A stretch of DNA of 64,000 bases from the NCBI GenBank assembly GCA_019358975.1, contig JAHHIL010000002.1, positions 62,001 to 126,000 on the forward strand, in the 5' to 3' direction. The stretch is from Trichocoleus desertorum ATA4-8-CV12 (GTDB lineage Bacteria; Cyanobacteriota; Cyanobacteriia; FACHB-46). A program made the translations under genes and the position numbers. Below, piece after piece: positions 59,568-62,197 of this stretch. Positions within the stretch are counted from its first letter, which is position 1, and the number at the start of each line of letters is the position of its first letter. Below the pieces are notes generated by a model, which saw nothing but the letters and a program-made list of their open reading frames with translations, made no database searches and was not told the DNA's origin.

Positions 59568-60119
59568 CTAGATTGACTGAGATTGAGCATTGGTGGGCGG
59601 CGCGATCGCCTGAGGTGCTGCTAAATCCGCTGGGTTCATTTGCTCATACTTCTCAAAGGGTTGATGAATCCAAGGATTGTCGGGTAAGTAATCTACGTAA
59701 TAGTCCGGGGTAATGACAGAACAAGCTTTATACCAAATCGCAGCCGTTCGGACTTCTTCTACGTAAAATCCATATTTGCGATCGAGCCAAGTTAAGGTGC
59801 GCTGTAGTGTAATCCCCGAATCTACTAGGTCATCAACCAGCAAAATATGACTGCCTAAGTTAGGTGTAGTCATGGTGAGATCACGGGAAAAAGTAATCGA
59901 ACCTCTGACTTGATTGTTCAACCCGCCATAAGAGGAAGTAGCCAAAATTGCTAAAGGTTGGTTATAGATGCGTGACAAAATATCACCGACACGCACCCCC
60001 CCTTTAGCCAAACAAATAATTTGATTGAACTGCCAATTGGACTGATAAATCTTGGCGGCAAGCGCTTCAATTTTTTGATGGTACTCAGTCCAAGAAACGT
60101 GAAGATCCACCATAATCAA
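59568..60119 (-). CDS. Phosphoribosyltransferase family protein
   Basis: A 183-residue type I PRTase. The PRPP-binding motif is HILLVDDLVDSGITLQ (about 93-108), and the hood/N-terminal parts include IICLAKGGVRVGDILSRIYNQPLAILATSSYGG. This arrangement resembles xanthine-guanine or hypoxanthine PRTase-like proteins, but the base cannot be deduced. The C-terminal tail has DNPWIHQPFEKYE. ATG 60119 or ATG 60113 may be used. Confidence 0.85.
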   Translation of the reverse strand: MIMVDLHVSWTEYHQKIEALAAKIYQSNWQFNQIICLAKGGVRVGDILSRIYNQPLAILATSSYGGLNNQVRGSITFSRDLTMTTPNLGSHILLVDDLVDSGITLQRTLTWLDRKYGFYVEEVRTAAIWYKACSVITPDYYVDYLPDNPWIHQPFEKYEQMNPADLAAPQAIAPPTNAQSQSI

Positions 60120-60221
60120 TTGAGAAGTGAGAATGATGAGAATGATACCTTGCTTGGGGCGATCGCTTTTAACAAAACTTGAACAAGAGATTATCCTTCA
60201 AAGTATGAAGCTAATTCTTGA

Positions 60222-60352
60222 AGAGCCATTTATCAGCTGACTCCTAATCAGAAAATGCAGTTGTTGATATTCGTAAACTGCGTAATTACTGCCTTAATCC
60301 AAGACACAATGATGGAAAGCACAAAGCTCGGCTATTTTCCTCGATTCTTGAC
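60222..60352 (+). other. Out-of-register N-terminal remnant of the DUF6883 gene
   Basis: The frame of the downstream gene stays open back to 60248 and encodes SENAVVDIRKLRNYC and RHNDGKHKARLF, which looks like the normal N-terminus of the DUF6883 family. It has no ATG, GTG or TTG and is closed by TAA at 60245. Shifting register just upstream gives QLTPN, as if one base had been lost near 60248. This points to a damaged start region or a non-canonical initiation codon. Confidence 0.6.
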
Positions 60353-60565
60353 ATGACGGCTGACAATGCTGAAGAATTACGTCAAATTTTGCTTGAAGCC
60401 ATCAAAACTCATGAGGCTCAATTAGGAAGACAGGATGAGTTTGGACAACGCTACACTCTCGATTTCATAATCGAACGGCAAGCTAGAAGTGCAACTCTAC
60501 GAAGTGGCTGGATCATTGAAAATGGTTCAGAGGTGCCAAAGTTAACGACCTGCTATCCTCTGTAA
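60353..60565 (+). CDS. DUF6883-like protein, N-terminally truncated as read
   Basis: Seventy residues from ATG 60353 (MTADNAEELRQILLEAIKTHEAQ) with the family's C-terminal signature RYTLDFIIERQARSATLRSGWII to LTTCYPL. Family members that I recall are about 105-115 residues, so roughly 35-40 N-terminal residues are missing from this reading; they are visible upstream in the same frame but lack a start codon. DUF6883 is often found next to DUF4926 and is suspected to be a toxin-antitoxin-like or mobile defence module; that role is unproven. The stop lies 21 bp before the DUF4926 start. Confidence 0.6.
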   Translation: MTADNAEELRQILLEAIKTHEAQLGRQDEFGQRYTLDFIIERQARSATLRSGWIIENGSEVPKLTTCYPL

Positions 60566-60586
60566 TTAATGGAGGTAATGAGCACG

Positions 60587-60832
60587 ATGAATAATACAGT
60601 CAAGTTGCTAGATGTGGTTGCCCTGACCGTTGACCTTCCCCAGTACAATTTGTGGCGTGGGCAGGTTGGAACAGTTGTTGAAACACTAGCAGATGGTATT
60701 GCATTCGAAGTTGAATTTAGCGATCGCAACGGGCGTACCTACGAGTCTTTAGGGTTGCGCCCAGAACAAATGATGGTTCTGCATTTTGAGCCAGTATCAC
60801 CCGATTCAAAAGCTGAAATGCTTACAGTGTAA
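60587..60832 (+). CDS. DUF4926 family protein
   Basis: An 81-residue protein with the DUF4926 pattern: KLLDVVALTVDLPQYNLWRGQVGTVVETL, then FEVEFSDRNGRTYESLGLRPEQMMVL. The fold is a small SH3-like beta barrel by appearance. ATG 60587 lies ten bases after a strong GGAGGT (60571-60576) and starts right at the domain; ATG 60569 and 60578 are too near or overlap it. It pairs with the DUF6883-like gene upstream; it may be the partner or antidote of that protein, but this is inference. Confidence 0.78.
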   Translation: MNNTVKLLDVVALTVDLPQYNLWRGQVGTVVETLADGIAFEVEFSDRNGRTYESLGLRPEQMMVLHFEPVSPDSKAEMLTV

Positions 60833-60835
60833 ACA

Positions 60836-62197
60836 GTGCACTTTAATTTTTCCCTAGTTCCTCTTCCAGCTTGGATGCAGAAGAAAAAGTTGATTTTGTG
60901 GGTTTGCGGGGGCTGTATCGGCTTTGTTAGCTTGCCTGTGCTGTGGATCTTGGGCGGTAATTGGGTCGCTCACCAGCAAGAAAACCAGTCTCAGCAACAA
61001 TGGCAAGCACTGAACGCTCAGTTTGACCATGCGGGTGCTAACCAGTCAGCCTTACAGCTAGAAGCCTTAAGTGCGGGTTTGGGAATTAACTTGCTGGGCG
61101 TCAAAAGCGATCGCCCCCTTCTGTCTCAAGCAGAAACTAAGCAGGCTGAGTCGATTCATCAAGAACTACAAGCATTTTTAGAACGGCAACTAGAAGATAA
61201 TACTGATGCGATTGAGCCAATCCCTCAGCGCTTGCAGAACTATCTAAAGGTGCATGCAACCCAGCTAGAGGCTATCCGTCAGCAAGGGTTACAAGGTGAA
61301 ATGCCCCAGTGGGAGTCAGCTACCCCCTATCCTGATGTCACGCAAGTGCGGCCTACCTTTGCTGGCTTCGTCAAACTTCAACGCCTGCTGATTGCGGATG
61401 TCTTAGAGAAGCATCGACTGGGGCAAACCGAAGCTGCGATCGCCAGTCTGGAAGCAAGCTGGAAACTGAATCAAGCTTTGCGCGATCGCCCAGAGCTGAT
61501 GAGCCAAACTGTGGCCCTGATTGTGACCAAAACACAAGCAGGCACCCTCCGCAAAATGGATCGCTTACCCCCCGTCTGGCAGCAGCGCCTGATGGAACAC
61601 GACTATCGTCAATCTTTTCAGACCGCACTGAACTGGGAAAGCTGGCTCGTGGCTGATGTGATTCGTAAAACTGATTTACAAACTCAGCCAGAATCCCTAT
61701 CGGGGGTATCAAGATTTTGGTATTCACTCCGCCAACCCTATTTACGCTTGGCAGCTTTGGATGCGGCTAGCAAAATGCGACAAGCTTACCGATCGCTTCC
61801 CCAAGAAAACACCTGTCTCTTTGATGCTCCCACTTTCGATATGGACTTAGATACCTCATTAGCTACCTGGAATGGTGAGAGAGGGGTAATCTTGTTTGGG
61901 TTTGCTCAACAGTGGCGAACGGCAGGCTTCTTGATGATCGATCTAGAACTAACTCAAAAAGTTCTAAAGACCAAAGCGGCGATCGCCCAGCCCCAGACAG
62001 AACCCCAGCCTCAGCTAAAACCTGTCAACTCGACCCACCGACCCTCTGTTGTTTGTCCTCATGCTGGGTGGATCTATCGAAACTTGCCAGACCAAGGGTG
62101 GTCTCTCACCTTTAGCCAAACGCTAGAACGACCTGCCCAGGAAGTCAAGGGTCTAGTTCTACCGTTAACTTATCGTGCTAAAGCACAGAAACTCTAA
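60836..62197 (+). CDS. Membrane-anchored hypothetical protein
   Basis: A 453-residue protein from GTG 60836 (ATG 60875 also possible). One N-terminal helix (about 18-45, KLILWVCGGCIGFVSLPVLWILGG) anchors a large, mainly helical extracytoplasmic domain with many Gln and Leu residues, for example EALSAGLGINLLGV, AAIASLEASWKLNQALRDRPELMS and GVSRFWYSLRQPYLRLAALDA. The C-terminal part contains two cysteines (NTCLFD, VVCPHAGW). No catalytic motif is evident. It follows DUF4926 with 3 bp between stop and start, but its different character suggests that it is not part of that module. Confidence 0.6.
   Translation: MHFNFSLVPLPAWMQKKKLILWVCGGCIGFVSLPVLWILGGNWVAHQQENQSQQQWQALNAQFDHAGANQSALQLEALSAGLGINLLGVKSDRPLLSQAETKQAESIHQELQAFLERQLEDNTDAIEPIPQRLQNYLKVHATQLEAIRQQGLQGEMPQWESATPYPDVTQVRPTFAGFVKLQRLLIADVLEKHRLGQTEAAIASLEASWKLNQALRDRPELMSQTVALIVTKTQAGTLRKMDRLPPVWQQRLMEHDYRQSFQTALNWESWLVADVIRKTDLQTQPESLSGVSRFWYSLRQPYLRLAALDAASKMRQAYRSLPQENTCLFDAPTFDMDLDTSLATWNGERGVILFGFAQQWRTAGFLMIDLELTQKVLKTKAAIAQPQTEPQPQLKPVNSTHRPSVVCPHAGWIYRNLPDQGWSLTFSQTLERPAQEVKGLVLPLTYRAKAQKL

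What the first reader, a model, noticed from the sequence alone, without database searches (positions are those of the whole stretch)
60205..60832. DUF6883/DUF4926 pair with a damaged or unusually initiated first gene
Seen: 35 codons of family-like N-terminus lie in frame upstream of ATG 60353, but no start codon exists before TAA 60245. One lost base near 60248 would restore register to QLTPN. The partner gene is intact with a strong ribosome-binding site. Known: DUF6883 is commonly beside DUF4926. Inference: the first gene decayed while its partner was retained, as expected if the pair is a toxin-antidote type module.
Basis: partly seen in the sequence, partly recalled or inferred. Interest (0 to 1): 0.58.

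Follow-up and report, generated by a model that had tools for sequence, protein, structure and literature searches.

The report
Broken toxin gene beside intact antidote
In this cyanobacterium a small gene that looks like an RNA-cutting toxin has lost its start while its partner, the likely antidote, is intact; the same one-sided decay recurs across cyanobacteria, which suggests that this unnamed gene pair is a toxin-antidote system.

Summary
An open DUF6883 frame (60248-60562; Pfam E 3e-28) has no ATG/GTG/TTG in its first 35 codons. DUF4926 downstream is intact.

(1) One-sided decay in 388 cyanobacterial genomes: of the 150 best DUF6883 hits, 149 of 149 testable have DUF4926 beside them; of the 150 best DUF4926 hits, 59 of 147 testable have only a broken DUF6883 (27) or none (32). 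(2) The DUF6883 model (pLDDT 96) matches tRNA-cutting CdiA-CT toxins of the BECR RNase fold (6cp9, Z 11.2, 100 residues, 2.4 A); its invariant Lys15, Tyr19 and Thr/Ser106 fall where catalytic residues lie. DUF4926 models as an SH3/KOW-like barrel.

Toxicity, RNase activity and binding are untested; the pair model gave no confident interface. The window locus is an accessory gain with an ordinary, probably recent, lesion. The family assignment is the interesting part: I found no paper on DUF6883. Less secure: orphan DUF4926 genes often follow ParE, HicAB or PIN modules.

The parts
60248..60565 (+). DUF6883 (PF21814) reading frame, 105 codons plus stop, without a usable start codon; predicted BECR-fold RNase toxin, inactivated
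   Evidence: fold from an intact relative
60232..60250 (+). lesion zone: the start codon present in relatives is absent and the register changes by one base
60353..60565 (+). only conventional ORF left of the first gene (70 aa); lacks the first two helices with Lys15, Tyr19, His25, Lys31, so it should be inactive
60570..60575 (+). GGAGGT ribosome-binding site of the partner gene
   Evidence: direct reading
60587..60832 (+). DUF4926 (PF16277), intact, predicted SH3/KOW-like barrel, proposed antidote (longest ORF 60569-60832)
59568..60119 (-). phosphoribosyltransferase, left border of the accessory site; conserved in both genus mates
60836..62197 (+). 453-aa protein without Pfam hit, right border of the site; conserved in both genus mates

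Best explanation
DUF6883-DUF4926 is a two-gene toxin-antidote module. DUF6883 is a metal-independent ribonuclease of the BECR fold, most like the tRNA-cutting CdiA-CT toxins of Klebsiella 342 and E. coli 3006 (inferred from model and residues); DUF4926 is a small SH3/KOW-like barrel that neutralises it, probably by covering the active site (inferred, not shown). In the window the toxin gene has been inactivated by loss of its start codon and of register, apparently recently, while the antidote gene stays intact with its own ribosome-binding site. The order toxin-then-antidote lets toxin-killing lesions happen without harming antidote expression; the reverse loss would be lethal and is not seen.
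For: Lesion. Asymmetry: DUF6883 best 150 in 388 genomes: 149 of 149 testable have DUF4926 adjacent, 1 at a contig edge; DUF4926 best 150: 88 with unbroken DUF6883, 27 with broken, 32 with none, 3 at contig edges; Fisher p 7e-22, or 3e-11 counting broken remnants only. The 22 fetched remnants lie in 22 genomes of 14 families, so they arose many times. Stops inside the domain: DUF6883 8 of 150, DUF4926 1 of 150. Six genomes with DUF6883 but no DUF4926 hit: 3 have a divergent DUF4926-like gene next door, 1 is at a contig edge, 2 have only broken DUF6883. Fold: pLDDT 96.3; the 5 best Foldseek rows all come from CdiA-CT/CdiI complexes, best E 7e-4; Z 11.2 to 6cp9_G, 9.0 to 6vek_A, then BrnT 6.5 and 6.2, RelE 5.2. 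Residues: Lys15 84/84, Tyr19 84/84, Lys31 84/84, Trp93 83/84, Arg/Lys103 80/84, Thr/Ser106 84/84, in the places of Lys157/Lys204, Tyr208, Arg252 and Thr255/Thr330.
Against: No activity, toxicity or binding is shown. The read-through pair model had pTM 0.57, so no confident interface. Residue matching rests on the ends of aligned ranges, not on a printed alignment; Tyr160 of 6cp9 is one residue off Tyr19 in that register. His25 is only 70/84. The survey used the top of score lists, and start codons of 83 'unbroken' partners were not checked. 32 of 147 DUF4926 have no trace of DUF6883, which also fits an independent role for DUF4926. A distant viral DUF6883 (L260) has no DUF4926 hit nearby. No sign of relaxed selection in the window copy.
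Confidence: 0.75

Rival explanations
1. The lesion is a sequencing or assembly error and the gene is intact in the cell.
For: Draft of 90 contigs; the frame behind the lesion is open and about as constrained as in intact relatives (window vs L028 dN 0.105, dS 0.63); the catalytic-type residues are kept.
Against: Two separate differences (start codon and register) within about 20 bases, not in a long homopolymer. Genome completeness 99.98. Like lesions occur in many other genomes.
Confidence: 0.1
2. The first gene is still translated, from a rare start codon (CTG, ATT) or through frame slippage.
For: The frame is open for 105 codons and shows no relaxed selection; CTG and ATT codons lie in the frame.
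Against: No slippery heptamer was seen by eye at the register change, and the upstream frame has no ATG/GTG/TTG between its last stop and that point; the CTG in the frame would start after Lys15's neighbour codons; nearly all intact relatives use ATG.
Confidence: 0.1
3. DUF4926 is not an antidote but an independent regulator or housekeeping barrel; DUF6883 is a harmless or regulatory RNase that needs it, and orphan DUF4926 persist because they are useful.
For: 32 of 147 testable DUF4926 have no DUF6883 trace; NusG/KOW and NdhS-like fold; orphans stand downstream of other modules.
Against: Does not by itself explain why intact DUF6883 was never found without DUF4926, nor the CdiA-CT-like fold with a conserved catalytic set.
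Confidence: 0.15
4. DUF6883 is a polymorphic (delivered) toxin domain and DUF4926 an immunity gene, so the window is an orphan toxin-immunity cassette rather than an addiction module.
For: Closest folds are CDI toxins; DUF6883 also sits at the C-terminus of several unrelated proteins and of a phage head-protein-like ORF.
Against: Most listed cyanobacterial copies are stand-alone open frames of about 110-140 aa, without a carrier; no known domain was found on the four fused N-termini scanned.
Confidence: 0.2

Closest known systems
CdiA-CT/CdiI of Klebsiella pneumoniae 342 (6CP9) and E. coli 3006 (6CP8, 6VEK)
   Same: BECR fold; Lys, Tyr, Thr (and Arg) of the active site in matching places; toxin gene followed by a small partner gene
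   Different: CDI toxins are the tips of very large secreted proteins; DUF6883 is mostly a stand-alone small protein; DUF4926 is an SH3/KOW-like barrel; sequence identity 15-18%
Type II toxin-antitoxin modules with BECR toxins (RelE, BrnT, HigB)
   Same: two small adjacent genes, toxin-first order as in BrnT and HigB (order recalled and in PMC11980606, passage), one-sided decay, partly similar fold (Z 4-6.5)
   Different: no recognised DNA-binding antitoxin; structure is nearer to CDI tRNases
Colicin D-type tRNases (Tox-ColD)
   Same: CdiA-CT Kp342 superimposes on the colicin D active site (PMC6851490, passage); MuF carriers are known for Tox-ColD (PMC3482391, passage), compare L260
   Different: colicin D itself was not among the listed structural rows; no sequence link found

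Membership tests
DUF6883 (PF21814) | profile match over the curated cut-off | tested here: met
   98.7 bits against 27; first five positions missing
DUF4926 (PF16277) | profile match over the curated cut-off | tested here: met
   95.2 bits against 29.1, full length
BECR-fold RNase toxins | helices followed by a four-stranded antiparallel sheet, structural match to members | tested here: met
   (intact relative L028, not the window copy)
BECR-fold RNase toxins | conserved catalytic-type residues with an alcoholic residue in the fourth strand | tested here: met
   Thr/Ser106 84/84, Lys15 84/84, Tyr19 84/84; places by range ends only
BECR-fold RNase toxins | RNase activity | not testable with these tools
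   no experiment
Type II toxin-antitoxin module | two short adjacent co-directional genes | tested here: met
   87 of 88 listed neighbours same strand, DUF6883 first, profile gaps 20-61 bases
Type II toxin-antitoxin module | toxin not kept without its antitoxin | tested here: met
   149 of 149 testable; six exceptions by profile gave no intact lone DUF6883, one of them being at a contig edge
Type II toxin-antitoxin module | antitoxin binds toxin | tested here: inconclusive
   pair model pTM 0.57
Type II toxin-antitoxin module | toxin arrests growth, antitoxin relieves it | not testable with these tools
   no experiment
CDI / polymorphic secreted toxin | toxin is the C-terminal tip of a large secreted carrier | tested here: not met
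   window frame is stand-alone; of 150 listed DUF6883 open frames the longest is 329 aa; no other Pfam domain above cut-off on four fusions

The most novel reading that the evidence does not exclude
DUF4926 is a general-purpose antidote or damage-control barrel: besides guarding against DUF6883 it is clipped as a third gene onto complete antitoxin-toxin operons (ParE/RelE, HicAB, DUF433-DUF5615), perhaps by protecting a shared target (tRNA or ribosome) rather than one toxin.
Probability: 0.12. Interest if true: 0.75.

Novelty: new variant of a known kind. Interest (0 to 1): 0.5.

Why it matters
Two Pfam families of unknown function, found in 213 and 238 of 388 sampled cyanobacterial genomes, get a testable role: a stand-alone relative of CDI tRNase toxins paired with an SH3/KOW-like antidote. 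If true it adds an antidote fold that I did not find described and would explain why many cyanobacteria carry lone DUF4926 genes.

Tried and rejected
Read-through of the pair as one chain to see an interface: domains folded, orientation not confident. Sequence search of the PDB with DUF6883 and DUF4926 profiles: nothing below E 0.6. PADLOC: no hit for either window protein or L028; the fused copy L240 gave PDC-S05 at E 0.011 on its N-terminal part, disregarded. PHROGs: one weak hit for DUF4926 (E 0.0095) and nothing below 0.2 for DUF6883. NCBIfam: no hit for either. Relaxed selection in the window copy: not seen; 2 changes at highly conserved columns (G40D, W82R) against 0-6 in 23 others. Colicin D was not among the 50 listed structural rows; that excludes nothing. 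Promoter-like scan of 60100-60900 found 4 sites against 1.7 expected; not used. Literature: DUF6883 0 papers; DUF4926 1 paper, one mention seen as a passage; Pfam accessions 0 papers; SH3/KOW-type antitoxins, 3 listed papers, none on topic by title.

Full report
WHAT IS THERE. The window lies in a genome of 6.06 Mb in 90 contigs; that it is a cyanobacterium is inferred from its relatives and repeated GCGATCGC sites. Behind TAA 60245-60247 an open frame of 105 codons runs to TAA 60563-60565. It matches DUF6883 (PF21814) at E 3.1e-28 from profile position 6 to 108, and the next ORF matches DUF4926 (PF16277) at E 1.5e-27 over its full length. The first 35 codons contain no ATG, GTG or TTG; the first is ATG 60353, which would give 70 aa. 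Of the 35 named loci found in public genomes, 27 have a full DUF6883 without stops with DUF4926 behind it, 4 have a broken DUF6883 with DUF4926 (L020, L023, L030, L034), 2 have a broken DUF6883 and no DUF4926 hit (L033, L035), 1 ends at a contig edge (L012) and 1 has a replaced N-terminus (L017). The usual start is M-L-I-P-N-A-E-N-A-V-V-D-I-R-K-L. Aligned with 9 relatives the window lacks their common ATG and changes register by one base shortly after: two lesions. Intact copies exist in many genomes and in the genus.

RECENT AND ACCESSORY. Between the same two neighbours (phosphoribosyltransferase and 453-aa protein) genus mate G002 has about 200 bases and no pair, and G001 has a GNAT-type ORF of 162 aa instead (GNAT is my reading of that ORF, not a profile result). 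The pair is therefore an accessory gain at a variable site. The remaining frame is still constrained: window against L028 dN 0.105, dS 0.63; intact L028 against L001 0.055 and 0.71. It has 2 changes at columns at least 90% conserved in the other 23 sequences, where those have 0-6. So the lesion is recent, or an error. The own genome has two further places: an intact pair on contig C5, with DUF6883 at the end of a longer ORF, and on C24 a DUF6883 cut to its last part with DUF4926 open; a fourth DUF4926 (C13) is alone. Thus 2 of 3 DUF6883 in this genome are broken and all 3 of their DUF4926 are open. G001 has one further DUF4926 without DUF6883.

ONE-SIDED DECAY. I searched 388 genomes of the class (a sample of a larger group). 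DUF6883 occurs in 213, DUF4926 in 238. The output lists the best 150 hits of each; lower-scoring hits were not listed and are not counted. 88 of each list are neighbours within 600 bases, 87 of 88 on one strand with DUF6883 first; the 88th (G338) also has a DUF4926 in the usual place. I fetched the other 62 + 62 places and searched them with home-made profiles. DUF6883 side: 61 of 62 have DUF4926 adjacent (60 scored intact, L127 an open 161-aa stretch with a divergent domain end; in L122 the order is reversed), and 1 of 62 is at a contig edge. Total 149 of 149 testable. DUF4926 side: of 62, 5 have intact DUF6883, 22 a broken remnant, 32 none within the 0.9-1.8 kb fetched upstream, 3 are at contig edges. 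Of the 88 listed neighbours, 4 DUF6883 carry an internal stop and the window lacks a start; the other 83 were taken as unbroken on the absence of stops alone. Total of 147 testable: 88 unbroken, 27 broken, 32 none. Fisher test 149/0 against 88/59: p 7e-22; against broken only (88/27): 3e-11. These p-values ignore relatedness; the 22 fetched remnants lie in 22 genomes of 14 families. Of the 22 remnants, 12 keep only the 3' part next to DUF4926 and 4 only the 5' part; the other 6 are split, frameshifted or carry stops. In two (L166, L170) a short insertion with inverted ends sits inside DUF6883, beside an open DUF4926 (seen by eye). Six genomes with DUF6883 but no DUF4926 profile hit were re-read: L290, L291 and L292 have a divergent DUF4926-like gene right behind, L293 ends at its contig edge, L294 and L295 are broken DUF6883. 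A distant viral case (L260) has no DUF4926 hit.

STRUCTURE. DUF6883 of L028 (intact relative) was modelled with 36 sequences: pLDDT 96.3, pTM 0.87, three helices then four strands. The five best Foldseek rows against the PDB come from CdiA-CT/CdiI complexes (best E 7e-4). VIA-align: 6cp9_G Z 11.2 (100 residues, 2.4 A, 18% identity), 6vek_A 9.0, 6cp8_A 8.6, 7vd7_A (toxin-antitoxin complex) 6.5, BrnT 3u97 6.2, RelE 1wmi 5.2. The two CdiA-CT are BECR RNases acting on tRNA-Ile; active-site residues are given as K157, Y160, H170, R252, T255 (Kp342) and K204, Y208, H256, R260, T330 (EC3006) (PMC9086364 and PMC6851490, passages seen). From the ends of the aligned ranges, Lys15 falls on K157 and K204, Tyr19 on Y208 (one off Y160), residue 103 on R252 and residue 106 on T255 and T330. 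In 84 non-redundant DUF6883, Lys15, Tyr19, Gly28, Lys31 are 84/84, Trp93 83/84, Arg/Lys103 80/84, Thr/Ser106 84/84, His25 70/84. The window frame keeps these residues, while the 70-aa ORF from 60353 would lose Lys15 to Lys31. Choice of tRNA as target is inference from the nearest structures.

PARTNER. In the read-through pair model DUF4926 folds as a small barrel (block pLDDT mostly 78-88); best rows for that part are Hpy99I (3fc3_A, Z 9.7, 55 residues), Ssl0352/NdhS (3c4s_A, 9.0), NusG (1m1g_A, 8.8). pTM 0.57 gives no reliable interface.

ORPHAN DUF4926. Of the 32 DUF4926 with no DUF6883 trace, 24 have an ORF of at least 45 aa ending just upstream. Of these 24, 5 match ParE_toxin, 1 DUF5615, 1 HicB (7 of 24), plus 1 XisI and 1 Uma2. 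By reading, several are complete antitoxin-toxin pairs with DUF4926 as third gene (antitoxin names there, such as HicA and DUF433, are my reading). Controls: genes downstream of DUF4926 0 of 58 with these toxin-antitoxin families, genes upstream of DUF6883 pairs 3 of 47 (2 ParE, 1 PIN, only the top 25 of 65 families shown, so a lower bound). Fisher 9e-5 and 0.025; with the near-identical L172 and L181 counted once 3e-4 and 0.051. This is suggestive only.

DUF6883 AS A MODULE. At least four unlike N-terminal extensions precede DUF6883 in longer ORFs; in the four scanned, Pfam found only DUF6883 above cut-off. L260 carries it at the end of a 392-aa ORF that reads like a phage head-morphogenesis protein (identity by reading). 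This is the usual behaviour of toxin domains.

VERDICT. Observation confirmed, inference supported though not proven. The window copy itself is an ordinary broken gene; the worth lies in a testable role for two common families. Literature searched; papers seen as passages only: PMC10343443, PMC9086364, PMC6851490, PMC11980606, PMC3482391.

Noticed in passing
G000 contig C24, locus L241 3313-3694 (and L038): Second damaged copy in the same genome: DUF6883 reduced to its last 45 or so positions beside an open DUF4926.
   Followed up: partly
L172, L181, L186, L195, L196, L199, L212: DUF4926 as third gene directly behind ParE/RelE, HicAB or DUF5615 modules, without DUF6883.
   Followed up: partly
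L166 1278-1411 and L170 1467-1581: Short insertions with inverted ends (MITE-like) interrupt DUF6883 in two cyanobacteria; DUF4926 stays open.
   Followed up: no
L260 2170-3348: DUF6883 domain at the C-terminus of a phage head-morphogenesis-like protein in a viral contig, as in MuF-type toxins.
   Followed up: partly
L245 943-1431: In genus mate G001 the same intergenic site holds a GNAT-type acetyltransferase ORF; in G002 it is empty: a variable insertion site.
   Followed up: yes
L229, L233, L240; L231, L232, L234; L242; L228: Uncharacterised N-terminal domains fused to DUF6883, several types recurring across genomes, no Pfam hit in the four scanned.
   Followed up: partly
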